Source of the DNA: an uncultured Microbacterium sp. | GTDB taxonomy: Bacteria; Actinomycetota; Actinomycetes; Actinomycetales; Microbacteriaceae | NCBI GenBank assembly: GCA_913774845.1 | Contig: CAJYJO010000025.1 | Location: 1 to 38,712, forward strand | DNA length: 38,712 nucleotides | Direction: 5' to 3' | In this document: in pieces, positions 1,283 through 38,466 of the stretch | Layout: each line of letters starts with the position of its first letter | Numbering within the stretch: the stretch's first letter is position 1 | The notes under the pieces: model-generated | What the model was told of the DNA's origin: nothing | The model's input: only the letters and a program-made list of their open reading frames with translations | Databases searched by the model: none | Program-made: the position numbers and the translations under genes

Positions 1283-2046
1283 TGACCCTCGCGCGTCGCG
1301 TGATCCCGTGCCTCGACGTCGCCGCGGGGCGCGTCGTGAAGGGCGTGAACTTCCTCGACCTGCGCGACATGGGCGACCCCGTCGAACTGGCGAAGCTGTA
1401 CTTCGACCAGGGGGCCGACGAGGTCACCTTCCTCGACGTCACCGCGACGGTCGACGAGCGCTCCACGACCTACGACGTCGTGCGCCGCACGGCCGAGCAG
1501 GTCTTCATCCCGCTCACCGTGGGCGGGGGAGTGCGCTCCGCCGAGGACGTCGCCCGCCTTCTCGCCGTCGGCGCCGACAAGATCGGCGTCAACTCCGCGG
1601 CCATCGCCCGGCCCGCGCTGATCGACGAGATCGCCGACCGCTTCGGCGCGCAGGTCATCGTGCTCTCGCTCGACGTGAAGCGCTCGGCATCCACGGCCTC
1701 CGGGTTCGTCGTGACCACGCACGGCGGCCGTGCCGAGACCACGCTCGACGCTCTGGAATGGGCACGCGAGGCGGTCGAGCGCGGAGCGGGCGAACTGCTC
1801 GTCAACTCCATCGACGCCGACGGAACGAAGCAGGGCTTCGACCTCGAACTCGTCCGTCTCATGCGGCAGGTCGCCGCGGTCCCGGTCATCGCCTCGGGCG
1901 GCGCGGGGGAGCTCGAGCACTTCGCGCCCGCCATCCAGGCCGGCGCCGACGCCGTGCTCGCGGCATCCGTGTTCCACTCCGGCCAGCTCACCGTGGGACA
2001 GGTCAAAGACGCCATGGCCGCCGAGGGGATCGAGGTACGCCGATGA
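1282..2046 (+). CDS. hisF: Imidazole glycerol phosphate synthase, cyclase subunit
   Basis: Cyclase half of IGP synthase. It uses ammonia supplied by HisH to convert PRFAR to imidazole glycerol phosphate and AICAR. The 254-residue (beta/alpha)8 barrel has the two expected catalytic aspartates, D12 in RVIPCLDV and D131 in VLSLDVK, and phosphate-binding glycines in LTVGGGVRS. The ATG at 1282 was chosen over longer in-frame starts because it overlaps the hisG stop and gives the canonical N-terminus. HisH is not encoded here and must be elsewhere. It ends in an ATGA overlap with hisI. Confidence 0.97.
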
Positions 2047-2381
2047 GCGTCGACCGTGTGACCTACAACGCCGACGGACTCGTCCCCGCTGTCATCCAGC
2101 AGTTCGACTCGCGTGAGGTGCTGATGATGGGGTGGATGGATGCCGAAGCCCTGAACCGTACGCTGACCTCCGGCCGCGTGACCTTCTGGTCGCGCTCCCG
2201 CCAGGAGTATTGGCGCAAGGGCGACACGTCGGGTCACATCCAGCTGGTCAAGGGCGCGCGCCTGGACTGCGACGGCGACACCCTTCTCATCGAGGTCGAC
2301 CAGATCGGCGCCGCGTGCCACACCGGCGACCACACCTGCTTCGACGCCGACGACCTGCATCCGGTCGTGGGGGAGCGCTGA
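2043..2381 (+). CDS. hisI: Phosphoribosyl-AMP cyclohydrolase
   Basis: Opens the adenine ring of phosphoribosyl-AMP, the third step of histidine synthesis. The 112-residue length is typical of single-domain HisI. Metal ligands are visible as the C76/D75/D77/D79 cluster in LDCDGDTLL and C92, H97 and C99 in ACHTGDHTC, consistent with the zinc and magnesium sites of the family. [17 protein letters not shown] is the classic signature. The start overlaps hisF by 4 bases (ATGA), and the stop overlaps the next gene by one base (TGATG). Confidence 0.97.
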
Positions 2382-2968
2382 TGCGGCGCGCCCGTTCGAC
2401 GGCGGTGCTCGGCATGCTCCTGGCCGGGGCGATCGGCGTCATCGCGTCGACCCAGACATGGATCGACGTCACCCTCGACGACGGCGCCCAGCAGACGCTC
2501 GCCGTGCCGGGCGCCGAGGCGCTTCCGGTGCTCACCCCCCTGAGCCTTGCGGCCCTCGCCCTCGGCGCGGCACTGTCGATCGTCGGTCCGGTGCTGCGCT
2601 ATGTCTTCGGTGCGCTGGGCGTGCTCATCGCGGCGTTCGTCGGTTTCGGGGCCGTTCAGATCCTCTTGTCGACTCCCGTCTCGGCGACAGCGGCGACGGT
2701 CACCGATGCCACGGGCATCTCGGGAACGGATGCCGTGGCCTCGCTCGTCTCGGGCCTGTCGCTCACCCCGTGGCCGGCGGTGACGCTCATCGCGCAGGTC
2801 GTGCTGTTCGCGGCATCCGTCTTCACTCTCGTCACCGCTCGTCGTTGGGCCTCCGGGGCGAGCCGCAAGTACCGCACGGCCGAAGAGGCGCGCATCGCCA
2901 CGGGTCGCCCGCACGACGCGATCGACTCGTGGGACGACCTCTCGCGCGGCGACGACCCCACCGCCTGA
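2381..2968 (+). CDS. Trp biosynthesis-associated membrane protein
   Basis: A 195-residue integral membrane protein of the actinobacterial Trp_oprn_chp type (TIGR02234-like), usually encoded between trpE and trpC. Hydrophobic segments are visible at about residues 5-25, 48-70, 74-100 and 135-158, with a charged cytoplasmic-looking tail after the last one. Biochemical function is unknown; the association with tryptophan genes is by conserved context. Here it follows hisI directly with a one-base overlap. trpE, normally found in this position, is missing (see findings). Confidence 0.85.
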   Translation: MRRARSTAVLGMLLAGAIGVIASTQTWIDVTLDDGAQQTLAVPGAEALPVLTPLSLAALALGAALSIVGPVLRYVFGALGVLIAAFVGFGAVQILLSTPVSATAATVTDATGISGTDAVASLVSGLSLTPWPAVTLIAQVVLFAASVFTLVTARRWASGASRKYRTAEEARIATGRPHDAIDSWDDLSRGDDPTA

Positions 2969-3257
2969 CGTAGCGGCTTACCCCACCGCCCGAACGTAGC
3001 GGCCTGACGGAGCGGCCCGTTCCACCGCCCGATCTCGCGGCACGACCCTGCGACCGCCCGACCTCGCGGCGAACCATCCTGCCCCGGCGCCCGCCGCACC
3101 CTCGCGGGCCCGGCGCTCAATCCGCCGCGACAAACGCTTTCGCGAGTGAAAAACGCTCTCGCGCGCCGTTTGCCACTCGCAGAGGCGTTTATCGGTGCAG
3201 AACACCGCGACACCCCGACATCGAGACGACCGCACCGGCACCCCACCTCGGCTTCGA
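2969..3257. other. Intergenic region before the trpC cluster
   Basis: 341 bases (2969-3309) separate the two membrane-protein genes. No convincing ORF is present. The region holds imperfect short repeats of the type ACCGCCCGA..TCGCGGC, the 67-bp palindromic element annotated separately, and a -10-like hexamer at 3258. No tandem Trp codons indicating a classical attenuator leader peptide were seen. Confidence 0.6.
3128..3194. repeat. Imperfect 67-bp palindromic element
   Basis: The outer arms are 21 bases each: CGACAAACGCTTTCGCGAGTG on the left, and a right arm that matches its reverse complement at 17 of 21 positions. A nested inverted repeat (AAACG..CGTTT) lies in the loop around CTCTCGCGCG. 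It lacks a T-tract, so a simple terminator is unlikely. It could be a REP-like dispersed element or a regulatory structure for the downstream trpCBA cluster. One copy is visible here. Confidence 0.6.
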
Positions 3258-3263
3258 TAGACT
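3258..3263 (+). promoter_or_regulatory. -10 element for the HGxxPAAW-trpCBA cluster
   Basis: TAGACT in the context TCGATAGACTGAG lies 46 bases before the ATG at 3310. The implied leader of about 40 bases includes an AGGAG Shine-Dalgarno sequence at 3301-3305. Confidence 0.45.
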
Positions 3264-3309
3264 GAGCGGACGCTTTCCCCCGCGCCCGCGCGCGACTGTT
3301 AGGAGCCCC

Positions 3310-5659: not shown

Positions 5660-6447
5660 CCTCGCGCGTCGCCGCGGCGATCGAGGCCGCGCACGCCGAC
5701 GGTCGCGCCGCGTTCATCGGCTACCTGCCCGCCGGTTTCCCCGACGTCGCCACGAGCATCGAGGCGGCCGTCGCGCTGGCCGAGGCGGGCGCCGACGTCA
5801 TCGAGCTCGGCCCCCCGTACAGCGATCCGGTGATGGACGGCCTCATCATCCAAGAGGCCACGCAGACGGCCCTCGCCAACGGGTTCCGCATGCGCGACCT
5901 GTTCACGATCATCCGAGAGGTCACCGCGCGCACCGAGGTGCCGATCCTCGTCATGACCTACTGGAACCTCGTCGAGCAGTACGGCGTCGACCGCTACGCC
6001 GACGAGCTGGTCGCCGCCGGGGGAGCGGGGCTGATCACGCCCGACATCACCCCCGACGCCGGCGCCGCCTGGATCGCGGCGAGCGAGCGCGCGGGCCTGG
6101 ATCGCGTGTTCCTGGCCGCGCCGACCTCGTCCGACGAGCGTCTCGAGATGATCGTGGGCGCCTCCACCGGCTTCGTCTACACGGTCTCCACGATGGGCAT
6201 CACGGGCGAGCGTGCGCAGCTGGATGCCGCGGCTCGCGGTCTCGTGGAGCGGTTGCGGTCCTTCGGCGCGACGTACGCGTGCGTGGGCATCGGCATCTCC
6301 AACGCCGAGCAGGTCGCCGGTGTCGCAGCCTACGCCGACGGCGCGATCGTGGGCACGGCCCTCGTGAAGGCGCTTCGCGACGGCGGCGTCGGAGCTCTCT
6401 CCGACCTCGCCCGTGAGCTGTCCGCGGGCACCGCGCGGCGCGCCTAG
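5656..6447 (+). CDS. trpA: Tryptophan synthase alpha subunit
   Basis: Cleaves indole-3-glycerol phosphate to indole, which is channelled to TrpB. The 263-residue barrel has the catalytic pair E50 and D61 in [15 protein letters not shown]. The variant GPPYSDP replaces the commoner GIPFSDP. The flexible loop [10 protein letters not shown] is present. The GTG at 5656 forms a GTGA overlap with the trpB stop and gives the normal N-terminus; the reading frame also stays open far upstream, but only as a shadow of trpB. The stop codon is part of a TAGACT hexamer that may drive lgt. Confidence 0.96.
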
Positions 6448-7514: not shown

Positions 7515-12084
<4,570 letters not shown>

Positions 12085-15915: not shown

Positions 15916-15947
15916 GAAATGGATGCCACCTCAGTGGCATCCATTTC
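15916..15947. terminator. Bidirectional hairpin terminator
   Basis: A perfect 14-bp stem (GAAATGGATGCCAC with its complement) closes a CTCA loop between convergent genes, with TCGTTT just after. The A/T-rich base of the stem supplies short T-runs in both directions. Each arm contains the dispersed GGATGCC word. Confidence 0.85.
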
Positions 15948-16406: not shown

Positions 16407-16454
16407 CATCGCCTTCGATCGGGCCGGGGCCGGGGGAGTGTCCGTGGTTCTCGT

Positions 16455-16466: not shown

Positions 16467-19103
16467 GTGACGGATGCCGAAAAGCCTACTCTCCTCGTCG
16501 TCGACGGCCATTCGCTGGCGTACCGGGCGTTCTACGCCCTGCCGGTCGACAACTTCTCGACGAAAGACGGGCAGCACACCAACGGCATCTACGGGTTCCT
16601 GTCGATGTTCGTGAACCTCGTCAAGGCCGAGAAGCCGACGCACCTCGCGGTCGCCTTCGACACCTCGCGCCAGTCGTTCCGCACGCGCGAGTACGCCGAG
16701 TACAAGGCCAACCGCAGCGAGTCCCCGTCCGAGTTCAAGGGGCAGATCCCGCTCCTGCAGGACTGCCTCCGGGCCATGGGCGTGCCGGTCCTCTCCAAAG
16801 AAGACTTCGAGGCCGACGACATCCTCGCCACCCTCGCCACGCAGGGCGCGGAGCAGGGATTCGACGTGCTGGTGTGCTCGGGCGACCGCGACACGATCCA
16901 GCTCGTCACCGACGACATCACCCTGCTGTACCCCAACGTGCAGGGGGTGTCGCAGCTCAAGCGCTACGACACCGCCGCCGTGATCGAGAAGTACGGTCTG
17001 CCGCCCGAGCAATACCCCGACATCGCGGCCCTCGTCGGCGAGACGAGCGACAACCTGCCGGGCGTGCCCAAGGTGGGCGAGAAGACCGCGGTGAAGTGGC
17101 TCACTCAGTGGGGTTCGCTCGACGCCCTGCTCGAGAACGCCGACAAGATCACCGGCGTCGTCGGCGGCAACCTCCGCGAGCACCTCGACGGCGTGCGCCG
17201 TAACCGTTCGCTCAACCGTCTGCTGCGGGACGTCGAGCTCCCGGTGGGCCCCGGCGATCTCGAGATGCACCCGCTCGACGCGCAGGCCGTGCGCGACATC
17301 TTCGCCCGCCTCGAGTTCCGCACGCTCCTTCCGCGCGTCTTCGACGCCCTCGGCGGAGACGCGGGCGAGGTCGAAGAGAAGCGCCCCACCGCGACCGCCC
17401 CGACGCCCACCCGTCTCGACGCCGACGCCCTGGCATCCTGGGCCGCCGCGGCCGCGGGACCGGTCGGCGTCACCATCGCGCTCGAGGGTTCTCAGCCCAC
17501 GGCGATCGGCCTCGCCTCGGCCGACGCCGCGGTCGAGACCGAGTGGACGGATGCCGTGGGCGAGGCGCTCGCATCGTGGTTGGCATCCGATGCGCCGAAG
17601 GTGTTCGCCGATGCCAAGCCGCAGATCAAGGCGCTCGCCCGCCGCGGTCTCGCCGTCGACGGTCTCGCCTTCGACGTCGTGCTCGCCGGGTGGCTGGTGC
17701 GCCCAAGCTTCCCCGACAAGACGCTCGGCGACCTGGTCGAGCGCGTCCTCGACGAGAAGCTGCCCGTGGCCGACCCGACCCAGCTCGTGCCCGAGACCGA
17801 GGGCGCGACGCCGGGTCAGCTGTCGTGGTTCACGCGCCGGGTGGCCGAGGCGCAGCGCGCCGAACTGCCCGAACGGGTAGCGAGCGTGCTCGACGACATC
17901 GAGCTTCCCACGCTCACCGCTCTCGCCGACATGGAGCTCGCGGGCGTCGCCGTCTCGCACGAGAAGCTCTCCGGCTTCTCGAACGAGCTCGCCGCCCGGG
18001 CCGACGCCCTGGCGCGCGACGCCTACGCCGCAATCGGTCACGAGGTGAACCTCGGCTCGCCCAAGCAGTTGCAGGAGGTGCTCTTCGACGAGCTGCAGCT
18101 GCCGAAGACGCGCAAGACCAAGAGCGGGTATACGACAGATGCCGCTGCCCTCGCCGATCTGCAGGAGAGCGCCGACCACCCCTTCCTCGACCTGCTCCTG
18201 CGTCACCGCGAGGCGACGAAGCTCAAGCAGATCATCGACGCTCTGGACACCGCGACCGGCGCCGACGGCCGCATCCACACCACCTACGTGCAGACCGGCA
18301 GCCAGACGGGGCGCCTGTCGAGCACCGACCCGAACCTGCAGAACATCCCGATCCGCACCGAGGAGAGCCGCCGCATCCGCGCCGCGTTCGAGGTGGGCGA
18401 GGGCTACGAGACACTGCTGACGGCCGACTACTCGCAGATCGAGATGCGCATCATGGCGCACCTGTCCGGCGACCCGGGGCTCATCGAGGCCTTCAACTCG
18501 GGCGAAGACCTGCACCGCTTCGTCGGTGCGCGCGTCTTCGGTGTCGAGCCGGAGGACGTCACTCCGGCCATGCGCACCAAGGTCAAGGCGATGTCGTACG
18601 GCCTCGTCTACGGCCTCTCGGCGTTCGGCCTGTCGAAGCAGCTGCGCATCGAGCAGTCCGAGGCCAAGAAGCTCATGCTCGAGTACTTCGCGCGCTTCGG
18701 TGCCGTGCGCGACTACCTGCGCGGCTCGGTCGAGCAGGCGCGTCAAGACGGCTACACCGAGACGATCTTCGGTCGCCGGCGCCCGTTCCCCGACCTCACG
18801 AGCATGAACCGCGTCCTGCGTGAGAACGCCGAGCGCGCCGCGCTCAACGCCCCCATCCAGGGCAGCGCGGCCGACATCATGAAGGTCGCCCTGTTCCGCA
18901 TCCGCGACGAGCTGGCGTCGGCGGGGCTGCGTTCGCGCGTGCTTCTCCAGATCCACGACGAACTCGTCGTCGAGATCGCGGCGGGGGAGTGGAATGCCGT
19001 CGAGCAGATCGTCCGCTCGCGCATGGCCGACGCCGCCGACCTCTCGGTGCCCCTCGACGTGCAGATCGGACGAGGCGGCGACTGGGACGAGGCGGGCCAC
19101 TAG
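16467..19103 (+). CDS. polA: DNA polymerase I
   Basis: Gap-filling and repair polymerase. The 5'-nuclease domain (about 1-290) shows DGHSLAYRAFYALP, AVAFDTSR, FEADDILATLA and VCSGDRDT. The middle domain (about 310-490) keeps the exonuclease fold length, but the metal-binding D-x-E site is absent (the strand reads VGVTIALEG), so proofreading is probably lost, as in many actinobacterial Pol I. Polymerase motif A is DYSQIEMR (D654), motif B is KVKAMSYGLVYG and motif C is HDELVVE (H830, D831). 878 residues. The GTG start is placed by the -10 hexamer and the start of the conserved domain. Confidence 0.96.
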   Translation: MTDAEKPTLLVVDGHSLAYRAFYALPVDNFSTKDGQHTNGIYGFLSMFVNLVKAEKPTHLAVAFDTSRQSFRTREYAEYKANRSESPSEFKGQIPLLQDCLRAMGVPVLSKEDFEADDILATLATQGAEQGFDVLVCSGDRDTIQLVTDDITLLYPNVQGVSQLKRYDTAAVIEKYGLPPEQYPDIAALVGETSDNLPGVPKVGEKTAVKWLTQWGSLDALLENADKITGVVGGNLREHLDGVRRNRSLNRLLRDVELPVGPGDLEMHPLDAQAVRDIFARLEFRTLLPRVFDALGGDAGEVEEKRPTATAPTPTRLDADALASWAAAAAGPVGVTIALEGSQPTAIGLASADAAVETEWTDAVGEALASWLASDAPKVFADAKPQIKALARRGLAVDGLAFDVVLAGWLVRPSFPDKTLGDLVERVLDEKLPVADPTQLVPETEGATPGQLSWFTRRVAEAQRAELPERVASVLDDIELPTLTALADMELAGVAVSHEKLSGFSNELAARADALARDAYAAIGHEVNLGSPKQLQEVLFDELQLPKTRKTKSGYTTDAAALADLQESADHPFLDLLLRHREATKLKQIIDALDTATGADGRIHTTYVQTGSQTGRLSSTDPNLQNIPIRTEESRRIRAAFEVGEGYETLLTADYSQIEMRIMAHLSGDPGLIEAFNSGEDLHRFVGARVFGVEPEDVTPAMRTKVKAMSYGLVYGLSAFGLSKQLRIEQSEAKKLMLEYFARFGAVRDYLRGSVEQARQDGYTETIFGRRRPFPDLTSMNRVLRENAERAALNAPIQGSAADIMKVALFRIRDELASAGLRSRVLLQIHDELVVEIAAGEWNAVEQIVRSRMADAADLSVPLDVQIGRGGDWDEAGH

Positions 19104-21994: not shown

Positions 21995-23325
21995 CCACGA
22001 CCACCGACACCATCCGGGTGTCCGAACGCCTCGACGCCCTGCCGTTCACCCGTCGGCACGGACGGATCCTCGGCGGCTCCGGTCTGGGCTGGGCCCTGGA
22101 TGCCATGGACGTCGGCCTCGTCTCGTTCATCATCGCGGCCCTCAGCGTGCAGTGGCAGCTCGCGCCGACGCAGGCGTCGTGGATCGCGTCGGTCGGCTTC
22201 GCCGGCATGGCGATCGGGGCGAGCGTGGGTGGGCTCCTGGCCGACCGGTTCGGGCGTCGGCACGTCTTCGCGCTGACCCTGCTCGTCTACGGTCTCGCGA
22301 CGGGGGCGAGCGCCCTCGTGGGCGGTCTCGCCGCGCTGCTCGTGCTGCGCTTCGTCGTGGGCCTCGGCCTCGGCGCCGAGCTGCCGGTCGCGTCGACCTA
22401 CGTGAGCGAGTTCGCTCCCGCGCGGATGCGAGGGCGGCTCATCGTCTTCCTCGAGGCATTCTGGGCTGTCGGGTGGACCGCCGCCGCGCTGATCGGCTAC
22501 CTCGTCGTGCCGTCCTCGGCCGACGGCTGGCGCTGGGCCTTCGCCCTCGGCGCGATCCCCGCGGTGTACGCGCTGATCGTCCGGTGGGGTCTGCCCGAGT
22601 CGCCGCGGTGGTTGGCCTCGCGCGGTCGAAACGCCGAGGCGATCGTGATCGTGCGCGATCTGGAGGCCGCGGCCGGTCGCATCGCGCTCGAGGCCTCGAC
22701 GGAGGGGGTCTCGGCATCCGTTCCCGCCCCGCGCCCTCGCGTGAGCGCGCTATGGGCGCCGGCGCTGCGGGCCCGCACGGCGGCGCTGTGGGTGCTGTGG
22801 TTCTGCGTGAACTTCTCGTACTACGGCGCGTTCATCTGGATCCCGACGATCCTCGTCGCCCAGGGCTACGACCTCGTGCGCTCGTTCGGCTTCACGCTCA
22901 TCATCACGCTCGCGCAGCTTCCCGGGTACGCCGTCGCGGCCTGGCTGATCGAGGCCTGGGGGCGCCGCGCGACGCTCGCGACGTTCCTCGCCGGTTCGGC
23001 GGTGTCCGCGGTGCTCTTCGGCACGGCGACCGGCGAGATCACGGTGATCGCCGCCGGGATGGCGCTGTCGTTCTTCAACCTCGGCGCCTGGGGCGCGCTG
23101 TACGCCGCAACGCCCGAGACGTACCCCACGGCGCTCCGGGCCACCGGCGCGGGGTGGGCGGCGGGTGTGGGGCGCATCGCGTCGATCCTCGCGCCCCTCG
23201 CGGTGCCGCCGCTGCTCGGCATCGGGGGAGCGCCGCTGCTGTTCGTGGTGTTCGCGGCGTTCTTCGCCGTGGCGGTGGTCGCCGCGCTCGTCCTGCGCGA
23301 GCAGCGCGGGCGGGCGCTGGCGTAG
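21991..23325 (+). CDS. MFS transporter, sugar/aromatic-acid type
   Basis: A 444-residue major facilitator with about 12 membrane helices and a cytoplasmic loop near residues 220-255. The loop 2-3 motif GGLLADRFGRRHVF and the loop 6 motif PESPRWL are those of the sugar porter and aromatic acid:H+ symporter subfamilies. The N-terminus has GWALDAMDVGLVSF, where the acidic residues suit proton-coupled uptake. The substrate is not predictable. Translational coupling to the LLM oxidoreductase suggests a shared catabolic task. Confidence 0.9.
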   Translation: MTTTTDTIRVSERLDALPFTRRHGRILGGSGLGWALDAMDVGLVSFIIAALSVQWQLAPTQASWIASVGFAGMAIGASVGGLLADRFGRRHVFALTLLVYGLATGASALVGGLAALLVLRFVVGLGLGAELPVASTYVSEFAPARMRGRLIVFLEAFWAVGWTAAALIGYLVVPSSADGWRWAFALGAIPAVYALIVRWGLPESPRWLASRGRNAEAIVIVRDLEAAAGRIALEASTEGVSASVPAPRPRVSALWAPALRARTAALWVLWFCVNFSYYGAFIWIPTILVAQGYDLVRSFGFTLIITLAQLPGYAVAAWLIEAWGRRATLATFLAGSAVSAVLFGTATGEITVIAAGMALSFFNLGAWGALYAATPETYPTALRATGAGWAAGVGRIASILAPLAVPPLLGIGGAPLLFVVFAAFFAVAVVAALVLREQRGRALA

Positions 23326-23459: not shown

Positions 23460-24224
23460 ATGGCATCCGTCCGCTACGTCGCGATCGGCGACTCGTTCAC
23501 CGAAGGCGTCGGCGACGAACTGCCCGACAGCACCGTCCGAGGGTGGGCCGACCTGGCCGCTCAGGGCTGGGCGGATGCCGCCGGCGAACCGATCCAGTAC
23601 GCCAACCTCGCGATCCGCGGCAAGCTCATCGAGCCGATCGTCGCGCAGCAGCTCGAGCCCGCGCTGGCGCTGAAGCCGACCCACCTGTCCTTCAACGGCG
23701 GGGGCAACGACATGCTGCGTCCCCGCACCGGGATCGACCGCATCGTCGACCTGTTCGACCACGTCGTCCGCCGCTGCGACGAGGAGGGCGTGCAGCTCAT
23801 CGTGCTCTCGGGGGCGAACCCCTCGGCGGGACTTCCGCTCGGCAAGATCATCGAGGCGCGCGGAGACCGTCTCTCCCACGCGGTCGAGAAGCGCCTCGAG
23901 GCGCGACCCGACGTCGTCACCGCCTACAACTGGTTCGATCGCGAGCTGGCGGGCGGGGAGTTCTGGTCGGTCGACCGACTGCACATGAACACGCGCGGTC
24001 ATCACCGCGTCGCGGCGCGCGTGATCGAGTCCGTCGGCCACACCCCGCCGGGGGAGTGGTGGCACCTGCGGGAGATCCCCGAGACCGAGCGGCTGAAGGG
24101 CTCGGCGTACTACCGCGAGCACGTCGCCCCGTGGGTGCGGCGCCGCCTCACCGGCACGTCGTCGGGCGACAACCGCCAGGCGAAGTTCGGCGGCGGGTGG
24201 GTGGAGCTCACGCCGCGCGGGTGA
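23460..24224 (+). CDS. SGNH/GDSL hydrolase
   Basis: A 254-residue esterase or lipase-like protein. Block I is AIGDSFTEG with nucleophile S12, block III is FNGGGNDM, and block V is DRLHMNTRGHH with the D172/H175 pair. It has no signal peptide, so it is presumably cytoplasmic. Substrates of this family range from acyl esters to acetylated sugars and cannot be narrowed here. It is monocistronic, between the MFS gene and an SDR gene. Confidence 0.92.
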   Translation: MASVRYVAIGDSFTEGVGDELPDSTVRGWADLAAQGWADAAGEPIQYANLAIRGKLIEPIVAQQLEPALALKPTHLSFNGGGNDMLRPRTGIDRIVDLFDHVVRRCDEEGVQLIVLSGANPSAGLPLGKIIEARGDRLSHAVEKRLEARPDVVTAYNWFDRELAGGEFWSVDRLHMNTRGHHRVAARVIESVGHTPPGEWWHLREIPETERLKGSAYYREHVAPWVRRRLTGTSSGDNRQAKFGGGWVELTPRG

Positions 24225-24333: not shown

Positions 24334-25143
24334 ATGACTCTCGCACTCGTCACCGGAACCTCCAGCGGCATCGGCCTGCACACCGCCATCGGGCTCGCTG
24401 CCCGCGGCATCCGGGTGATCGCCACCGTCCGCGACACCGGCCGCGCCGACGCGCTGCGCTCAGCGGCATCCGAGGCGGGTGTCGAGCTCGACATCCGGGC
24501 ATTGGATGTGACGGATGCCGAAGCCGCGCGCGCCCTGGTCGAGGCGGTGGGTCCGATCGACATCCTCGTGAACAACGCCGGACGCGGTGCCGTGGGCACC
24601 CTCGAGCAGATGAGCGATGCCGATCTGCAGGAGCAGCTCGAGACGAACTACCTCTCGGTCGCGCGGCTCACCCGTCTCGTGCTCCGCGGGATGAGGGAGC
24701 GGGGGAGCGGCCGCATCGTGACCGTGACGAGCGTCGGGGGAGCGGTGGGACAGCCCTTCTCGGACGCCTACTGCGCGGCCAAGTTCGCCGTCGAGGGTCT
24801 CATGCAGTCGCTCGCCCCGGTCGTCGCCCCTTTCGGAATCGACGTGTCGATCGTCGAGCCGGCCGCCGTCGCCTCGTCGTTCGTCGAGTCGGTGCACCGC
24901 GCTGCGCCCGGCCCCTACGCGGCGTTGCAGCAGGCGTACCTCGATCGCGCGGCCGCGTCGTTCGCCAGTGCGCAGGCGGCCGACGACGCCGCCGACACCG
25001 TCGTCGAGGCGGCGACCACTGACGACCCGCGGTTCCGGTGGCAGACCTCGGAGGCCGCCGTGCGCTTCGCGAGCCTGTCGCTCGGTGACCTGACCGGGTC
25101 GCGCGTGCTGGGCGTGACGTCGGGATGGCTGCGTCGCGACTGA
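24334..25143 (+). CDS. Short-chain dehydrogenase/reductase
   Basis: A 269-residue classical SDR. The NAD(P)-binding motif TGTSSGIG is at residues 7-14, NNAG at 80-83, and the catalytic SDAYCAAK places Tyr146 and Lys150, with Ser133 in TVTSVGG. R33 after the second strand (TVRD) suggests a preference for NADPH. The substrate is unknown. A 109-base gap separates it from the SGNH gene, in which I see no RNA or hairpin of note. The next gene starts 27 bases later. Confidence 0.92.
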   Translation: MTLALVTGTSSGIGLHTAIGLAARGIRVIATVRDTGRADALRSAASEAGVELDIRALDVTDAEAARALVEAVGPIDILVNNAGRGAVGTLEQMSDADLQEQLETNYLSVARLTRLVLRGMRERGSGRIVTVTSVGGAVGQPFSDAYCAAKFAVEGLMQSLAPVVAPFGIDVSIVEPAAVASSFVESVHRAAPGPYAALQQAYLDRAAASFASAQAADDAADTVVEAATTDDPRFRWQTSEAAVRFASLSLGDLTGSRVLGVTSGWLRRD

Positions 25144-25169: not shown

Positions 25170-25727
25170 ATGACGCGCGTGTGGCTGGATGCGACGGACT
25201 GGGCGTGCTGCGGCGACCCGTTCGCCGTCGGCGACGAGGTGGACTTCGTGATCGAGGGGCGGATGCCCTCCGACCGTTTCGTCCGATACCTCGGTGCGGA
25301 GCTGGCCGCGACGGTCGACGCCTTCGAGGCGCGGCATCCGGAACACCCGACGGATGACCGCGTGCGCGGACGGGTCTCGGGCGTGCAGATCGTCGTCCAC
25401 GAGAGCGTCGACCGGTTCGTTCTTCGTCGTCCCGGATACGGTGCCCCTCCGGATGCCGAGATGCCCGCGGAGGGGGAGTTCTGGCCCTTCTCGGGGCGGG
25501 ACCTCGGCAACGGATTCCTCACCGGCACGCGCCCGACGAGGTGGATGCAGGTATCCGAGCGCGTGCCCGGGGCGGTCGAACTGGTGCCCAGCGACAGGGT
25601 GCCGGGGGAGCGCCCGGAGTCGGGCGATCGGGACACCGAGATCGACCTCGACGGGCCCGAGCCAGCCGAACGGCGGGTACGGGTGCGCACGGGGTGGCTC
25701 GTGGACGTCGAGGAGACGGATCTCTAG
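25170..25727 (+). CDS. DUF6578-like hypothetical protein
   Basis: A 185-residue acidic soluble protein starting MTRVWLDATDWACCGDPFAVGD. The W-x-CCG-x-PF-x-VGD pattern resembles what I recall of the actinobacterial DUF6578 family, but the match is from memory. No catalytic motif, signal peptide or membrane segment is visible. The ATG at 25170 is preferred over an upstream in-frame ATG inside the SDR gene because the recognisable protein begins there and a TAGCGT lies 7 bases before. Its TAG stop overlaps the convergent gene's stop within the shared CTAG (25724-25727). Confidence 0.7.
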   Translation: MTRVWLDATDWACCGDPFAVGDEVDFVIEGRMPSDRFVRYLGAELAATVDAFEARHPEHPTDDRVRGRVSGVQIVVHESVDRFVLRRPGYGAPPDAEMPAEGEFWPFSGRDLGNGFLTGTRPTRWMQVSERVPGAVELVPSDRVPGERPESGDRDTEIDLDGPEPAERRVRVRTGWLVDVEETDL

Positions 25728-26269
25728 GACGGTGCCGCGGCAGGCTTCCACGAGCACACGGCATCCACCAGTTCGCTCACCGTCGACCGACTGTCGAGGC
25801 GAAGGACGGGCTTGCCTGTCGTAGCCAACCACCTGTCGTGCTCGACGCGATTGCGACCGTCGAAAGCGGGATCGTCGTAGCCCTCGGCCCACGTCCTGAA
25901 CGCGCGCCAGGCGTCGTCATCGGGGACCGGCCCGCCGCGTCGAACGACCTCGCGGGCGTCGAGCCGCCGGAGCCTCTCGGAGGGATCCAGCGCGAGGAAG
26001 ACAATCGCATCGCACTCGGCGACGACCGACTCTCCCCACCCCAGCATCGACCCCGAGAGCACCCACGCGGGGCGCGCGGCGAAGATCTCGCGCATGAGGG
26101 CCACCCTCCGCCTTTCGTCGCGCTTTCGAATGAACGGGGGAGTGGTCGGCATCCAGAAATAGTCGTCGGCGTCGGCGTGCGGAACCGCCCAGCGCGCGGC
26201 CAACGCGTGACCCAGCGTGGTCGTCCCGCTGCCGCTCGCGCCGAGGATGTGCACGCGGGAGGGGCTCAT
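25724..26269 (-). CDS. P-loop NTPase, adenylate-kinase-like
   Basis: A 181-residue small-molecule-kinase-like P-loop protein. The N-terminal strand and loop read VHILGASGSGTTTLG, where the usual Walker A lysine is replaced by threonine (GSGTTT), a variant I recall in a group of proteins annotated as adenylate kinase or AAA_33. DADDYFW follows as the second conserved site, and an Arg-rich lid-like helix lies near RLRRLDAREVVRR. Activity is unproven. The ATG at 26269 has GAAGGG about 7 bases upstream; a GTG at 26287 overlapping the upstream SDR stop is the alternative. Confidence 0.8.
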   Translation of the reverse strand: MSPSRVHILGASGSGTTTLGHALAARWAVPHADADDYFWMPTTPPFIRKRDERRRVALMREIFAARPAWVLSGSMLGWGESVVAECDAIVFLALDPSERLRRLDAREVVRRGGPVPDDDAWRAFRTWAEGYDDPAFDGRNRVEHDRWLATTGKPVLRLDSRSTVSELVDAVCSWKPAAAPS

Positions 26270-27205: not shown

Positions 27206-27233
27206 AACTGACATAATGTGCATTATCGGCGTG
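27206..27233 (-). other. dif: Candidate chromosomal dif site (XerCD target)
   Basis: A 28-base site. On the plus strand it reads as arm AACTGACATAA, centre TGTGCA and arm TTATCGGCGTG. On the minus strand the order is XerC-like arm CACGCCGATAA, then centre TGCACA, then XerD-like arm TTATGTCAGTT. Against E. coli dif, 18 of 28 positions agree by hand alignment, including most of the inner 16. The GCCGATAA..TTATGTCA form is what I recall for actinobacterial dif. It is an A/T-rich island in noncoding DNA, and the polarity of GGGGGAG flips around it. Confidence 0.85.
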
Positions 27234-28302: not shown

Positions 28303-28485
28303 GAGTCGACCCTAGGGATTGTCGACACGACCACGGAATCCACACCGAGAGAAACGCCGTCAACGTGCGGGCCACCATCGCCCCTCAACGCAAGAGAGGG
28401 GGTGGGAGGCGCCCCGAAGACGTCGAGCAGGGCTACGCCCCGGGGTGAGCGGCGCCCTGAGACGGCGGCCGTCCCTCTCCCCCGC
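28303..28485. other. Divergent intergenic region
   Basis: Noncoding DNA between the divergent DUF4240-like and AEC transcription units. It contains one small hairpin (CCCCTC with GAGGGG, 28381-28401) and one copy of the leftward polar heptamer at 28477. No RNA gene or second dif-like site is visible. Confidence 0.5.
28309..28314 (-). promoter_or_regulatory. -10 element of the DUF4240-like gene, leaderless
   Basis: TAGGGT on the minus strand ends exactly 6 bases before the GTG at 28302. Confidence 0.5.
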
Positions 28486-28498: not shown

Positions 28499-28543
28499 AT
28501 GACTCCCCCGCGCGCCTTCCTGTCTGACCGGTTGAGCGCGTGA
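28499..28543 (+). CDS. 14-codon leader ORF coupled to the AEC gene
   Basis: An ATG 7 bases after a TACGCT hexamer opens a 14-residue frame, MTPPRAFLSDRLSA, ending TGA. The stop overlaps the GTG of the AEC transporter (GTGA). The AEC GTG has no evident Shine-Dalgarno sequence, so translation of this mini-ORF may deliver ribosomes to it. No run of one amino acid suggests classical attenuation. It could simply be a chance frame. Confidence 0.4.
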   Translation: MTPPRAFLSDRLSA

Positions 28544-29457: not shown

Positions 29458-29469
29458 CCGCCCGGTCAG
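29454..29469. terminator. Small hairpin between convergent genes
   Basis: CTGACC-GCCC-GGTCAG is a perfect 6-bp stem that contains both convergent stop codons (TGA of AEC, TCA of the opposite gene). It is short for a terminator. Confidence 0.35.
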
Positions 29470-30596
29470 GCGAACGCGCCGAGGCGCAGCAGAGGGACGG
29501 TGCGTTCCTCGTCCGTGAGCGAGCCGTGCTGCCCGATCATGCGCTGGGCGCGCTTGTCGGCCTCGCGGTCGTCGTAGAACGCGAAGCGCCCGCGCGCGGC
29601 GATCAGCACGTCACCGATGCGCGGCCGCACCTCGTCGTCGACCGGCGATCCGAACAGACCCGCGGCGATCGCCTCGTCGCGCGTCATCACCCAAGCTCGT
29701 GCGTCCTCGCTGTCGTGCCAGGTGCGGGCCACGGCATCCCCTCGTCCCTCGCTCGTGTAGAGGTGGAGCATGCGGGGCTCTCCCCCGATGAGCACGACGT
29801 CGTCGAGCAGGGCGTCGCCCTCGCGCAGCAGCACGTGCTTGTGCGCGGGGACGTCGACCATGCCGTGGTCGGCGGTCAGCAGCACGCCCGTGCTCGGGTG
29901 GATGGTCTGCGCCAGGCGGCGGGCGGCGTCGTCGAGCTGCTCGAGGGCGTCGGTCCACCGGTCGGACTCCCACCCGTCGCGGTGCCCGGCGGTGTCGAGC
30001 TCCGGGGCGTACAGGTAGGTGATGGACCCCGGATGCCGGGCGGCCAGATCGGCCGCGATGCGCACCCGTTCGTGGAGGTCGTCGGAGGGGAAGAATTCCG
30101 CACCTCGCAGCGTCGCCTCGGTGAACCCGGTCCCGGTGTAGCTCGGGCGCGAGACGACGAAGGCGCGACCGCCGGCGTTCGCGTGGGTCTCGAACAGCGG
30201 CGCGCGGCGCTGCCAGACGCGCGGGTCGAGGCCGTCGGTCTCCCAGCCGTGCAACTGGTTGGGCGCCAGGTCGGTACCGGGGATGCGCGCGCGGTAGCCG
30301 ACGATACCGTGCGCGCCGGTCTCGGTGCCGGTGAGCAGGCTCGTCAACGCGGCAGCGGTGGTGGAGGGGAAGACGGTGCGCGCGACGTCGCGCCGCCCGC
30401 CCGTCGCTCCGAGGAAGCGGGCGTGCCCGCGGCGCGCGGCGAGGTTGTGCGAACCGAGACCGTCGACGAGGAAGACGATGACGCTGCGCGCCGGCGCGAA
30501 CCAGTCGGACTCGCCCGTCAGGGCGCGCAGGGACTGCTCCACCACACCGGTGAGGCTGCGGGAACGCGGCGGGTCCGCCGGTAGGCTGAGGGACAT
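29466..30596 (-). CDS. Alkaline phosphatase superfamily / nucleotide pyrophosphatase
   Basis: A 376-residue member of the type I phosphodiesterase/nucleotide pyrophosphatase family. Metal and nucleophile motifs are visible: [13 protein letters not shown] (first Asp), [17 protein letters not shown] (nucleophile Thr), [10 protein letters not shown] and [10 protein letters not shown]. No signal peptide is seen, so it is probably cytoplasmic. The substrate is unknown. The ATG at 30596 was chosen over a longer in-frame start because the recognisable protein begins there and GGAAG lies upstream. It is divergent from parC. Confidence 0.88.
30582..30587 (+). promoter_or_regulatory. Possible -10 element of parC
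   Basis: TAGGCT in CCGGTAGGCTGAGG lies within the 5' end of the divergent phosphatase gene, giving parC a leader of about 75 bases that ends with GAGG at 30656. Confidence 0.35.
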
Positions 30597-30667: not shown

Positions 30668-33124
30668 ATGCCCGATTCCCGTTCCTCCTCTCCCGTCACC
30701 GAGCGCATCCACGATGTCGATGTCTCCACCGAGATGCAGGGGTCGTTCCTCGAGTACGCCTACTCGGTCATCTACTCGCGCGCGTTGCCCGACGCGCGTG
30801 ACGGCCTGAAACCCGTGCAACGGCGCATCCTCTACCAGATGGCGGAGATGGGCCTGCGCCCCGACCGGGGCCACGTCAAGAGCGCGCGTGTGGTCGGCGA
30901 AGTGATGGGAAAGCTCCACCCGCACGGGGACGCCCCGATCTACGACGCGCTGGTGCGTCTCGCTCAGCACTTCACGTTGCGGGTGCCGCTGGTCGACGGC
31001 CACGGCAACTTCGGCTCGCTCGACGACGGCCCCGCGGCCTCGCGCTACACCGAAGCGCGCCTGGCGCCCCCCGCGCTCGCGCTCACCGAGAACCTCGACG
31101 AAGACGTCGTCGACTTCATTCCCAACTACGACGGGCAGTTCCAACAGCCCGAGGTGCTCCCGGCCGCCTTCCCCAACCTGCTGGTCAACGGTGCGACCGG
31201 CATCGCTGTCGGCATGGCGACCAACATGGCGCCGCACAATCTGATCGAAGTGGTCGCGGCGGCGACCCATCTTCTGCAGCACCCGGATGCCACGGTCGAA
31301 GAGCTCATGGAGTTCGTTCCCGGCCCCGATCTGCCCACGGGCGGAATCATCGTCGGACTCGACGGCATCAAGGATGCCTACACGAACGGACGCGGCACCT
31401 TCCGCACGCGGGCGAAGGCATCGATCGAGTCCCTCGGTCCGCGGCGAACCGGCATCGTGATCACGGAACTGCCCTACCTCGTGGGGGCGGAGCGGGTCAT
31501 CGAGAAGATCAAAGACGCGGTGCAGAGCAAGAAGCTCGCCGGCATCGCCGATGTCACCGATCTCTCCGACCGTCACCATGGTCTGCGACTCGTCATCGGT
31601 ATCAAGACGGGGTTCGACCCGAAGGCAGTCCTCGAGCACCTCTACCGGCTGACGCCGCTCGAGGACTCATTCGGCATCAACAACGTCGCGCTCGTCGACG
31701 GCCAGCCCCAGACGCTCGGGCTCCGCGACCTGCTCCGCGTGTACCTCGAGCACCGCATCCGCGTGGTCACGCGGCGCAGCGAGTATCGCCTGGCGCGCAA
31801 GCGCGAACGCCTGCACCTCGTCGAGGGCCTGCTGATCGCGATCCTCGACATCGACGAGGTCATCCAGGTCATCCGTTCCTCCGACGACGGTGAACAGGCC
31901 CGCACCAAGCTGCAGGAGGTCTTCGATCTCTCGCACCCGCAGGCCGAGTACATCCTCGAACTGCGCCTGCGGCGCCTGACGAAGTTCTCGCGCATCGAAC
32001 TCGAGGCCGAGCGAGATCAGTTGAACGCCGAGATCGCTCACCTCATCGAGCTGCTGGGGAGTCAGACACTGCTCCGCCAGCAGGTGGCGAGAGAGCTGGA
32101 TGCCGCCGCCGAGGCGTACGGCACCCCCCGGCGCACGATGCTGCTGAACGGCGGTCCCGTGCAGCCGCGGTCGTCCCGGGCGGCGGCCGCTGCCGCCGAT
32201 CTGCAGATCGCTGATTCGCCGTGCCGTGTGTACCTCTCGGCGACCGGCCGCATGGTGCGCGCCGAACTCCTGGCCGACGCCCCCAACGGAGGCGTGGTGG
32301 CTCCGACCCGTCGATCGAAGCACGACGCGATCCGGTCCTCCGTCGACACCACCACGCGCGGCGACATCGGGGCGGTGACGTCGGCGGGTCGCATGGTGCG
32401 CTTCTCCCCCGTCGATCTGCCGTCGGTGCCCGCGAATTCCGTGCAGGTGGCGGCGGGCACGAAGGTGGAGCAGTACCTGGCTCTCGGTAAGGGAGAGGAG
32501 ATCGTCGCGCTGGTGCCGCTGGCCGACTCCCCCACCATCGCCCTCGGGACCGAGCAGGGCGTGGTGAAGCGTGTCGCGGCGACCGAGCTGGGCACCAAGG
32601 ATGAGATCGAGATCATCTCGCTGCGAGACGGTGACCGCGTCGTCGGTGCGGCCCCGGCGGGCGACAACGCTGAGCTGGTCTTCGTGGCGAGCGATGCGCA
32701 GCTGCTGCGCTTCGACGCGTCGTCGGTTCGCCCGCAGGGACGGTCAGCGAGCGGAATGGCCGGCATCCGTCTCTCCGACGGAGCGCGGGTCATCGCTTTC
32801 GCGGTTGTGGGAGCGTCGGCGTTCGACGCCGTGGTGGTCACCGTCGCGGGTTCCAGCGCAGCCTTGCCCGGTACCGATGCGGGAAGCGCAAAGGTATCGG
32901 CCTTCACCGAGTACCCCGCGAAGGGACGGGCGACCGGTGGCGTCCGTGCGCAGCGCCTGCTGCGCGGCGAGGACGCGCTCGTCCTCGCCTGGGTCGGCAC
33001 CGACCCGCGCGCCCTCGGCGCCGACGGTTCGGTGCGTGCGCTGCCCGAGGGCGGCGCGAAGCGCGACGCGTCGGGTCAGCCGCTGGACGCCGTCATCGGC
33101 GCGATCGGCACGGCGGTGCGCTGA
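30668..33124 (+). CDS. parC: DNA topoisomerase IV subunit A
   Basis: Breakage-rejoining subunit of a type IIA topoisomerase. 818 residues. The catalytic tyrosine is Y127 in [10 protein letters not shown], and the winged-helix region has [11 protein letters not shown] and [14 protein letters not shown]. At the site matching E. coli GyrA Ser83 there is Ala89, followed by Pro90, with Asp93 at the Asp87 position. The C-terminal beta-pinwheel lacks a GyrA box (QRRGGKG); the corresponding stretch reads [13 protein letters not shown]. That favours a topo IV-type decatenase over gyrase. parE follows in convergent orientation, 48 bases away, and the dif candidate lies about 3.4 kb to the left. Confidence 0.9.
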
Positions 33125-35242: not shown

Positions 35243-35250
35243 GATTTCCC

Positions 35251-35370: not shown

Positions 35371-35407
35371 GAGACTCGCCCACGACCACCTGAGGAGGGC
35401 ACCCGAC

Positions 35408-35629: not shown

Positions 35630-35640
35630 CCCTCCATCTA

Positions 35641-35676
35641 AACGGGCCCCGCGCACCTCGTGCGTCGGGGCCCGTT
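35641..35676. terminator. Strong bidirectional terminator
   Basis: AACGGGCCCCG pairs with CGGGGCCCGTT, and CGCAC pairs with GTGCG inside it with one bulged T, giving 16 bp around a CTC loop. It lies between the convergent DUF7455 and racemase genes, with CCGTTTG after. Confidence 0.88.
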
Positions 35677-35708
35677 CCGTTTGTCAGGCCTCCCCGCCTG
35701 CGGGCGTC

Positions 35709-36752: not shown

Positions 36753-37399
36753 GCGGTCACCCGCCGATCGGCGCGCACACCCACGACGGCGACGATCTCG
36801 GCGGCGCCGAGGCCCGTGGCATCCGTCCACTCCCCCAGCGAGGGGTGCCCGGCGTCGGGGTCGCCGAAGAAGACGACCTCCGCCCCACGCGGGACGGCCG
36901 CGTCGTCGACGTCGACGACGCAGACGTCCATCGCGACGCGACCGACGATGCGGTGACGCCGGCCGGCGATCGCGACCGTCGCGCTGTTGCCGAGCGATCG
37001 CACGACGCCCTGGGCGTACCCGCCGGTCACCAGGGCGACGGTGGTGTCCCGCGGCGCCCGGTGCGTGTAGCCGTACGACACGCCCTCTCCGCGCAGCAGG
37101 GGTTTGGTGCCCAGGGCCCGACCGCGCAGCGACAGCACGGGCTGCGCGTGGGAGCCGGGCAGGCCGAACAGGACCGCGGCGTCGAGGGGCGCGGCATCCA
37201 TCCCGAGGTCGGCGAGCACGGATGCCACCCATCCGGCGCCGTGACCCCACCCGTCGGCGGCGAGCACATCGTCGGCGTGCGAACCGGCACCGGCCGCGAG
37301 GGCGAGCGGCGCGTTGCGGCGCAGGGCGGACTCGGAGACGAGGGCCACGGGTGCCACTCTCCCGGCCGCGGGCGAGCGGGCAGGGAGCGTGGAGGTCAC
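36749..37399 (-). CDS. Alanine racemase C-terminal domain protein, lysine lost
   Basis: 216 residues. Positions about 86-170 match the Alr C-terminal domain: QPVLSLRGRALGTKP, GEGVSYGYTHRAPRDT (Y109 corresponds to the catalytic tyrosine supplied across the dimer) and VGRVAMDV (M157, D158). Before this, only a remnant of the PLP barrel remains: VLAADGWGHG at 45-54 aligns with VVKADAYGHG, with the lysine replaced by Ala47. Alone it cannot bind PLP in the usual way. The GTG at 37399 lies 6 bases after TAGTCT, so the mRNA is probably leaderless. It is translationally coupled to the lysine-bearing homologue downstream. Confidence 0.82.
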   Translation of the reverse strand: MTSTLPARSPAAGRVAPVALVSESALRRNAPLALAAGAGSHADDVLAADGWGHGAGWVASVLADLGMDAAPLDAAVLFGLPGSHAQPVLSLRGRALGTKPLLRGEGVSYGYTHRAPRDTTVALVTGGYAQGVVRSLGNSATVAIAGRRHRIVGRVAMDVCVVDVDDAAVPRGAEVVFFGDPDAGHPSLGEWTDATGLGAAEIVAVVGVRADRRVTA

Positions 37400-37404
37400 C
37401 GCTT

Positions 37405-37411
37405 TAGACTA
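37405..37411. promoter_or_regulatory. Overlapping divergent -10 elements
   Basis: TTAGACTAA contains TAGACT on the plus strand (37405-37410, for the ATP-grasp gene) and TAGTCT on the minus strand (37406-37411, exactly 6 bases before the GTG at 37399). One near-palindrome could serve both directions. Confidence 0.5.
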
Positions 37412-37443
37412 ACGGGGTCCTTCTTCCCCGACCCCGGAGCCAC

Positions 37444-38466
37444 ATGCCTCAGCAGGGATTCTCCCCCGTCACGCGCCTCCGCTACCTCGCCGGACGTGCC
37501 CGCCGCATCGACGTCGGATCCGTCATCGAACGCGCCAAAGAAGCCTCGGCCCAGCACGGCAAGGCCCTGCCGCTCGTCGTCGCCGACATGCTGTACCAGG
37601 CAGGCGTGAAGAACGTCGGCTTCCAGGACTACATCGACTACGACTTCGCGATCCTCACGCCCGCCGAGCGCGCGACGTACATGACGCACCCGGTGTCGAA
37701 CCAGATCTCGCAGAAGTACGACCACCCCGACTACCGGGGTCTCTTCCAGGACAAGGTGGAGTTCGACCGCAAATTCAGCGAGTTCCTCCGCCGCGACTGG
37801 ATGGTGGTGGATGCCGACAACGCCGACGAGCTGCGCGCCTTCACCGAGAAGCTGGGCACCATTGTCACCAAGGAGCCGGTCGGCCAGGCCGGCACCGGCG
37901 TGCACCGCTACCACGCGGCCGAGGTCGAGGACTGGCGCGCGTTCCACCGCGGACTGCTCGAGCGCGGCGAGATCCTCGTCGAAGAGGTCATCCGCCAGCA
38001 CGACGATCTCGCGGCCGTGTGCCCCGGCACCGTCAACACGACCCGCGTGACCGCCTTCTTCGACGGCGAGAAGACGCACATCCTCGCGATGGCGCAGAAG
38101 TTCGGCCGCGGCGCGGTCAGCGACCAGATGACGTTCGGCGGCTTCTATACGATGCTCGACGAGAACGGCCACGCCCTCGGCTCCGGCTACGACTCGCACG
38201 GCCACGTGCACGAGCTGCACCCCGACTCGGGCGTGCGCATCGCCGACTTCCAGCTGCCGATGATCGACGAGGTCAAGGCCTTCGTCGACCAGGTCGCCCG
38301 GGTCGTGCCGCAGGTGCAGTACGTCGGTTGGGACATCGTCGTCGGCCCCGACGGCCCCGTGCTCGTCGAGGGCAACTGGGGTGCCGGCGTGTACGAGAAC
38401 AAGCCGAGCGTTACGGGTATCCGCACCGGGCACAAGCCCCGCTATCAGGCCGCGATCGGGTTCTGA
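37444..38466 (+). CDS. ATP-grasp protein, sugar-transfer-associated type
   Basis: A 340-residue protein resembling the sugar-transfer-associated ATP-grasp family (PF14397-like, from memory). The ATP-grasp fold is suggested by TIVTKEPVGQAGTGVHRY (phosphate loop), EILVEEVIRQH, NTTRVTAFFDGEK and the metal-binding VGWDIVVGPDGPVLVEGNWGAG. Such proteins are often linked to cell-surface polymer synthesis; the reaction here is unknown. CGGAG lies 5 bases before the ATG. It is divergent from the racemase-like pair and shares its promoter region, which could imply use of a D-amino acid, but that is inference only. Confidence 0.8.
   Translation: MPQQGFSPVTRLRYLAGRARRIDVGSVIERAKEASAQHGKALPLVVADMLYQAGVKNVGFQDYIDYDFAILTPAERATYMTHPVSNQISQKYDHPDYRGLFQDKVEFDRKFSEFLRRDWMVVDADNADELRAFTEKLGTIVTKEPVGQAGTGVHRYHAAEVEDWRAFHRGLLERGEILVEEVIRQHDDLAAVCPGTVNTTRVTAFFDGEKTHILAMAQKFGRGAVSDQMTFGGFYTMLDENGHALGSGYDSHGHVHELHPDSGVRIADFQLPMIDEVKAFVDQVARVVPQVQYVGWDIVVGPDGPVLVEGNWGAGVYENKPSVTGIRTGHKPRYQAAIGF

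What the first reader, a model, noticed from the sequence alone, without database searches (positions are those of the whole stretch)
1525..37467. GGGGGAG switches strand perfectly at dif: candidate FtsK-orienting sequence
All 15 copies left of dif read rightward and all 7 copies right of it read leftward, so every copy points at dif. Direction does not follow the genes: 26136 lies in a minus-strand gene but points right, while 32404, 32527 and 37461 lie in plus-strand genes but point left. E. coli KOPS (GGGNAGGG) is also G-rich and points to dif. I know of no described orienting sequence for this genus.
Basis: partly seen in the sequence, partly recalled or inferred. Interest (0 to 1): 0.9.

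Follow-up and report, generated by a model that had tools for sequence, protein, structure and literature searches.

The report
DNA arrows pointing to chromosome terminus
A seven-letter DNA word in this bacterium's chromosome nearly always points toward the spot where chromosome copies are separated, and it does so in relatives across its class too, so it is very likely a signpost for the DNA pump FtsK; strand-biased words of this kind were already reported in actinobacteria, but what reads them has not been shown here.

Summary
In detail: 22 of 22 GGGGGAG copies point at dif. Gene strand, GC skew, composition and codon usage do not explain it. Polarity is total within 100 kb of dif and weaker farther out. 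The own genome has FtsK-gamma, a XerD match and one dif, so an FtsK-orienting motif (KOPS-like) is the best reading; binding is untested. Against strong novelty: Corynebacterium papers used (T/C)GGGGGAG, called an actinobacterial 'architecture imparting sequence', to find dif. New here: the exact word in Microbacterium, the selection tests, and persistence of the polarity in a dif-less chromosome, pointing from the centre to both ends (74:12). FtsK-gamma lacks one reported KOPS-reading residue, but so do gammas outside the class.

The parts
27206..27233 (.). dif site, 28 bp (two 11-bp arms and a 6-bp centre; core pattern 27209-27231)
   Evidence: only match in own genome; 57 of 59 genus genomes have it with <=2 mismatches; arm limits set by eye against E. 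coli dif (recalled)
1525..1531 (+). GGGGGAG, points to dif; in + ORF with His_biosynth domain
1905..1911 (+). GGGGGAG, points to dif; in the same + ORF
2369..2375 (+). GGGGGAG, points to dif; end of + ORF with PRA-CH domain
6019..6025 (+). GGGGGAG, points to dif; in + ORF with Trp_syntA domain
7799..7805 (+). GGGGGAG, points to dif; in + glutamate synthase large subunit gene
16432..16438 (+). GGGGGAG, points to dif; in + DNA polymerase I ORF
18983..18989 (+). GGGGGAG, points to dif; in + DNA polymerase I ORF
21076..21082 (+). GGGGGAG, points to dif; in + luciferase-like monooxygenase gene
23224..23230 (+). GGGGGAG, points to dif; gene not assigned
24050..24056 (+). GGGGGAG, points to dif; in + GDSL lipase-like gene
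24701..24707 (+). GGGGGAG, points to dif; in + short-chain dehydrogenase gene
24736..24742 (+). GGGGGAG, points to dif; in the same + gene
25472..25478 (+). GGGGGAG, points to dif; in + DUF6578 gene
25604..25610 (+). GGGGGAG, points to dif; in + DUF6578 gene
26136..26142 (+). GGGGGAG, points to dif although inside a - strand ORF (weak AAA_18 match)
28477..28483 (-). GGGGGAG, points to dif; upstream of the Mem_trans gene 28540-29457
28503..28509 (-). GGGGGAG, points to dif; upstream of the Mem_trans gene
29780..29786 (-). GGGGGAG, points to dif; in - strand phosphodiesterase gene
32404..32410 (-). GGGGGAG, points to dif although inside + strand gyrase/topoisomerase IV subunit A gene
32527..32533 (-). 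GGGGGAG, points to dif although inside the same + strand gene
36830..36836 (-). GGGGGAG, points to dif; in - strand alanine racemase ORF
37461..37467 (-). GGGGGAG, points to dif although inside + strand ATP-grasp gene

Best explanation
GGGGGAG is the Microbacterium form of a class-wide polar motif that orients the septal DNA pump FtsK. Proposed steps: gamma domains read the word on one strand (three per site in the E. coli model), the hexamer loads facing along the G-rich strand, and it pumps DNA toward dif, where gamma contacts XerD and dimers are resolved. Shown here: the polarity, its flip at dif, excess of the permissive and shortage of the non-permissive orientation beyond codon usage, orientation kept while sites turn over, and the presence of FtsK-gamma, a XerD match and dif.
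For: Polarity: 22:0 in the window; 66:0 within 1.5 kb of dif in 30 of the 57 genus genomes with a site; 383:12 within about 10 kb in 40 of the 121 class genomes with a site, all 40 leaning the same way. In the own genome the first 100 of 1158 places (the only ones listed) read 12:0, 23:1 and 1:63 (plus:minus) on contigs 1-3. In a complete relative 318:25, first of the 7441 7-mers that lean toward dif; of 18 substitutions at positions 1-6, 15 fall to 47-59% toward, the others (G1A 59:28, G1T 33:57, A6G 52:22) rest on small counts. Selection: leading genes 115:8, lagging genes 115:7, other sequence 88:10; against 60 synonymous shuffles copies toward dif are 1.86x and 1.59x expectation, away 0.11x and 0.23x. 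Gradient: 75:0 within 100 kb, 80-97% beyond, total density 3.8 to 1.8 per 10 kb, Spearman -0.59 for toward copies. GC skew: the 10 class genomes with negative skew toward dif still give 114:6. Turnover: in 80 named loci around the topoisomerase gene 429:10 keep one strand, while window copies are shared in only 71 of 337 comparisons. Machinery: FtsK-gamma in the own genome and 127 of 127 good class genomes; XerD match over cut-off.
Against: No binding or translocation data. In a dif-less chromosome the polarity persists (74:12), so dif is not required and any process ordered from origin to terminus could share it. Every good class genome has gamma, so there is no gamma-less test. Related G-rich words are partly polar: in the class set GGGGAGG is 162:49 and GGGAGGG 102:41, in G059 GAGGGGG is 178:120. 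Outside the class the polarity is not specific: in 10 loci GGGGGAG is 33:1, but reversed GAGGGGG 28:3 and GGGNAGGG 28:4. The gamma change is not class-specific. Within 500 bp of dif the class set is 15:5, and family f20 holds several exceptions.
Confidence: 0.78

Rival explanations
1. Mutational or compositional strand bias: leading-strand G enrichment or gene orientation produces the polarity without selection on the word.
For: 7-mers with 5 or more G lean slightly the same way in the relative (52.5% toward); GGGGGA is 569:157; related orders are partly polar in the class set; 13 of 15 left copies in the window lie in + strand ORFs with a Pfam match.
Against: In G059 the other six orders of the same seven letters are 54-65% toward against 93%. 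Lagging-strand genes are as polar as leading ones and synonymous shuffles do not reproduce it. Polarity holds against negative GC skew.
Confidence: 0.04
2. Chi-like recombination hotspot: an oriented stop signal for a break-processing nuclease, polar because broken forks are processed toward the origin.
For: Orientation from origin to terminus is what Chi would show (recalled for E. coli); copies are frequent, 1158 in 3.37 Mb; polarity persists in a dif-less chromosome.
Against: RecC is not found in the own genome and in only 37 of 148 class genomes. The polarity is alike without RecC (219:9, 22 genomes) and with it (164:3, 18 genomes). Density and bias are highest near dif, and between 0.5 and 1.5 kb from dif the class set is 55:0. 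The nuclease AdnAB was not examined.
Confidence: 0.08
3. A polar word for another origin-to-terminus process (fork restart, primase, SMC or topoisomerase guidance), with FtsK not involved: an architecture imparting sequence of unknown reader.
For: The functions of most such words are unknown (PMC5993296, passages); dif-less retention.
Against: Flip at dif, gradient toward dif, and ubiquity of gamma fit FtsK best.
Confidence: 0.1

Closest known systems
[quoted passage not shown]
   Same: Same core word, leading-strand bias, used to place dif; both octamer sets together have 856 leading and 61 lagging copies in C. aurimucosum (PMC2830990, passages); also plotted for C. ulcerans and C. variabile (PMC3164646, PMC3219685, passages).
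   Different: Reported there as octamers and as a tool to find dif; the name FtsK occurs 0 times in each of the three texts. Here the unit is the 7-mer with free flanks, tested for codon and gene-strand effects in Microbacterium and traced through the class.
KOPS of E. coli, GGGNAGGG
   Same: G-rich, polar, flips at dif, densest near dif; contains GGGNAG, as GGGGGAG does with N=G. On 49 kb of K-12 my pipeline gave 9:0 for GGGNAGGG and 2:1 for GGGGGAG.
   Different: One base longer; GGGNAGGG itself is not polar in the window (3:3) and only 128:67 in the class set.
SRS of B. subtilis (GAGAAGGG) and KOPS of L. lactis
   Same: Other lineages where a different polar word is reported for an FtsK/SpoIIIE-type pump; the L. 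lactis word is also a heptamer (PMC5357621, passages; PMC9764985, passages).
   Different: Other letters (the L. lactis word is A-rich); their readers have been studied at the bench, not so here.

Membership tests
Architecture imparting sequences (AIMS) | More abundant on leading strands | tested here: met
   318:25 in the G059 sample
Architecture imparting sequences (AIMS) | Abundance and strand bias rise with proximity to the terminus | tested here: met
   density 3.8 to 1.8 per 10 kb; 100% within 100 kb, 80-97% beyond, not steady
Architecture imparting sequences (AIMS) | 8-bp word | tested here: inconclusive
   The polar unit is a 7-mer; all eight one-base extensions are polar
KOPS (FtsK-orienting polar sequence) | Orientation flips at dif | tested here: met
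KOPS (FtsK-orienting polar sequence) | FtsK with gamma domain, Xer recombinase and dif present | tested here: met
   (XerC not separately identified)
KOPS (FtsK-orienting polar sequence) | Gamma residues reported to read KOPS conserved (S766, Q769, N777 in PMC9764985) | tested here: inconclusive
   S and Q conserved, N replaced by A in 31 of 31 class gamma domains read; but N is also absent in 30 of 30 gammas from outside the class (A 15, S 13, T 2)
KOPS (FtsK-orienting polar sequence) | FtsK-gamma binds the word and translocation is oriented by it | not testable with these tools
   needs biochemistry
KOPS (FtsK-orienting polar sequence) | Word is GGGNAGGG | tested here: not met
   GGGNAGGG 3:3 in window; known KOPS words differ among lineages, so this bars only 'E. 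coli-type KOPS'
Chi (RecBCD) | RecBCD present | tested here: not met
   no RecC match in own genome

The most novel reading that the evidence does not exclude
RGGGGAG is one conserved FtsK-orienting word for nearly the whole actinobacterial class, read by a gamma helix that lacks the asparagine reported to read KOPS elsewhere; in linear, dif-less chromosomes (family f21, Streptomyces-like by inference) it has been kept without dif, so FtsK there would use it only to pull chromosome arms through closing septa, separating orientation from dimer resolution.
Probability: 0.5. Interest if true: 0.65.

Novelty: new member of a known kind. Interest (0 to 1): 0.48.

Why it matters
I found no actinobacterial FtsK-orienting sequence named in the papers I searched and opened; the passages I saw of recent C. 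glutamicum and mycobacterial FtsK papers speak of KOPS in general terms. A single exact word with matching controls makes the question testable in one gel-shift experiment, helps to place the terminus in draft genomes, and offers a natural case where the word outlives dif.

Tried and rejected
Rejected: gene-strand, GC-skew, composition and codon-usage explanations; RecBCD Chi. E. coli-type KOPS as the active word here.

Led nowhere or weak: a co-evolution test of gamma residue and motif outside the class. Conservation of single window copies is patchy: 1 of 79, 46 of 80, 6 of 80, 2 of 53 and 16 of 45 comparisons, 21% pooled against 16% for heptamers with runs of G or C. The expectation that dif lies near the topoisomerase gene in relatives failed: no match better than 6 mismatches in the 80 loci, some of which are short. 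Script faults: a wrong spacer gave 'nodif' for 30 loci, repeated correctly; the genus bin 1500-3000 is an indexing artefact and is not used.

Limits: the arm boundary near the origin of G059 (3.58-3.60 Mb) was set from the motif itself; leaving out the 10 stretches more than 1.6 Mb from dif (33:3) leaves 285:22. The 957-base piece left of dif in L146 was dropped from the distance bins. My gene caller is simple and covers 71% of the sample. I chose the 40 class genomes from 121 for long contigs and spread. The 30 class gamma loci are the best-scoring of 141 genomes with a match. Whole-genome positions in the own genome were not obtained beyond the first 100 of 1158.
Full report
WHAT WAS CLAIMED AND WHAT IS THERE. 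The window is contig 25 of a 3.37-Mb draft genome near Microbacterium testaceum: its gyrase/topoisomerase IV subunit A protein (called parC below, by inference) is 99% identical to that of M. testaceum NS220. The dif core at 27209-27231 is the only match in the own genome; 57 of 59 genus genomes (own included) have a site with at most two mismatches while the reversed control finds none. Within the window GGGGGAG has the highest polarity score among 7-mers and is the only one with 15 or more copies and no exception.

INDEPENDENT TESTS. Because the word was chosen after looking, I tested it elsewhere. Around dif in 30 of the 57 genus genomes with a site (3-kb loci, one shorter) it points toward dif 66 times and away 0 times; one locus has no copy. 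In the own genome, the first 100 of 1158 places, the only ones listed, read 12:0, 23:1 and 1:63 (plus:minus) on contigs 1, 2 and 3. In a complete relative, Microbacterium sp. SORGH_AS_1204 (G059), I sampled 60 stretches of 20 kb, 1.2 of 3.7 Mb: the strand flips at dif and again near 3.59 Mb, 318 toward and 25 away, first of the 7441 7-mers that lean toward dif. Of the 18 single-base changes at positions 1 to 6, 15 fall to 47-59% toward; G1A (59:28), A6G (52:22) and G1T (33:57) rest on small counts; changes at position 7 leave 63-69%; all one-base extensions stay polar. So the unit is the 7-mer. In 40 class genomes from 16 families, chosen from 121 with a site, it is 383:12, with all 40 leaning toward dif; there AGGGGAG is also polar, 110:10, giving RGGGGAG. 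A second set of 30 3-kb loci, partly overlapping the first, gives 56:6.

CONTROLS. In G059 lagging-strand genes (115:7) are as polar as leading-strand genes (115:8), other sequence 88:10. Sixty rounds of shuffling synonymous codons within each gene, which keep protein and codon usage, predict fewer toward copies (observed 1.86 and 1.59 times expectation in leading and lagging genes) and far more away copies (0.11 and 0.23 times), so both excess and avoidance are at work. The other six orders of six G and one A reach 54-65% toward in G059, and all other 7-mers with five or more G together 52.5%. In the class set some of these orders are more polar, GGGGAGG 162:49 and GGGAGGG 102:41, while GAGGGGG is 68:52. 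Ten class genomes in which C exceeds G toward dif still give 114:6. The E. coli control on 49 kb around dif gave 9:0 for GGGNAGGG, 2:1 for GGGGGAG and 3:0 for GAGGGGG.

GRADIENT AND SHARPNESS. In G059 the bias is 75:0 within 100 kb, 93% at 100-400 kb, 97% at 400-800 kb, 90% at 800-1200 kb, 80% at 1200-1600 kb and 92% beyond, with total density between 3.8 and 1.8 per 10 kb; toward copies thin out with distance (Spearman -0.59), away copies show no significant trend (0.17). In the class set the count is 55:0 between 500 and 1500 bp from dif; nearer than 500 bp it is 15:5, the five exceptions lying in L218, L219 (two), L243 and L249.

TURNOVER. In 80 named loci around parC, 76 of them titled Microbacterium, 429 copies lie on one strand relative to parC and 10 on the other; 79 loci lean one way and one has no copy. 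Individual window copies are shared in only 71 of 337 comparisons (21%), against 16% for heptamers with runs of G or C. Orientation, not each site, is what is kept. dif itself was not found near parC in these loci; in G059 parC is about 120 kb from dif and on the other side, which fits an inversion around the terminus that leaves orientation toward dif unchanged (inference).

MACHINERY. The own genome encodes FtsK with a gamma domain, a XerD-family match over the curated cut-off plus two weaker ones, and one dif. Gamma is found in 127 of 127 good class genomes, 141 of 148 in all. Of three residues reported to read KOPS, S766, Q769 and N777 (PMC9764985, passages; placing them on the alignment is mine), serine and glutamine are kept and asparagine is alanine in 31 of 31 class gamma domains read. 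The same asparagine, N1296 of E. coli, is listed as a XerD contact with Q1288, R1289 and R1292 (PMC5052618, table seen in a passage); Q1288 and R1289 are kept in 31 of 31, R1292 in 28, lysine in three. However, 30 of 30 gammas from actinobacteria outside the class also lack the asparagine (15 A, 13 S, 2 T), so this change alone cannot explain a class-specific word. It fits a reader with changed specificity but is not proof.

OUTSIDE THE CLASS. In 10 loci around dif-like sites of other classes GGGGGAG is 33:1, but so nearly are GAGGGGG (28:3) and GGGNAGGG (28:4). Whether one exact word is a class trait stays open.

A DIF-LESS CHROMOSOME. Family f21 (10 genomes of 7-10 Mb) has no dif match in 10 of 10 yet has gamma in all 10. 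In 20 stretches of the 9.17-Mb single contig G077, one of the ten, the word points away from the centre toward both ends 74 times and the other way 12 times, split at the sequence midpoint; GAGGGGG is 47:43 and GGGNAGGG 49:64. So the polarity does not need dif. A review states that FtsK-like pumps move DNA through closing septa in S. coelicolor (PMC4255298, passage); I recall that ftsK mutants there lose chromosome ends. This suits FtsK without dif, and is also what any origin-to-end process would give.

RIVALS. A RecBCD Chi is unlikely: no RecC in the own genome and in 37 of 148 class genomes only, with polarity alike with it (164:3, 18 genomes) and without it (219:9, 22 genomes). AdnAB was not examined. 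An unknown reader remains possible.

PRIOR ART. Corynebacterium genome papers plot 'architecture imparting sequences G(A/T/C)GGGGGA and (T/C)GGGGGAG', citing Hendrickson and Lawrence 2006, with 856 leading and 61 lagging copies of both sets in C. aurimucosum; one paper calls them actinobacterial (PMC2830990, PMC3164646, PMC3219685; passages). The 2006 paper I did not see; Nolivos 2012 is not held. Searches combining KOPS or FtsK with actinobacteria, Mycobacterium, Streptomyces or Microbacterium and for the bare word (20 of 232 papers listed) showed no paper that I saw to name an actinobacterial FtsK word, but I opened only some of those listed. So the word and its strand bias are known in actinobacteria; its reader is not known to me, and I saw no report for this genus.

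VERDICT.

Noticed in passing
window about 29430-29470 and leftward; L009-L088: Synteny with the 80 parC loci begins near 29.45 kb and was not seen to the left of it (alignments over 150 bases); none showed dif near parC, so the terminus region was rearranged between this lineage and the others.
   Followed up: partly
window 27247-28302 (- strand ORF): ORF directly beside dif without Pfam match, in a stretch of lower GC (0.65-0.67); possible recent arrival at dif.
   Followed up: no
window 15917-15946: Perfect 11-bp inverted repeat with 8-bp loop before the DNA polymerase I ORF; terminator-like.
   Followed up: no
L217-L219 (family f20) and L236: Strongly negative GC skew toward dif (-0.10 to -0.22) with GGGGGAG still mainly toward dif; family f20 holds several of the exceptions closest to dif.
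   Followed up: partly
L332-L341: In other actinobacterial classes several G-rich words, including the reversed control, point to dif (33:1 for GGGGGAG, 28:3 for GAGGGGG).
   Followed up: partly
G059 sample (L120-L179): A second, weaker polar family (GGCAAG 409:223, CAAGGC 363:192, CAAGGG 239:123), perhaps codon bias of leading-strand genes.
   Followed up: no
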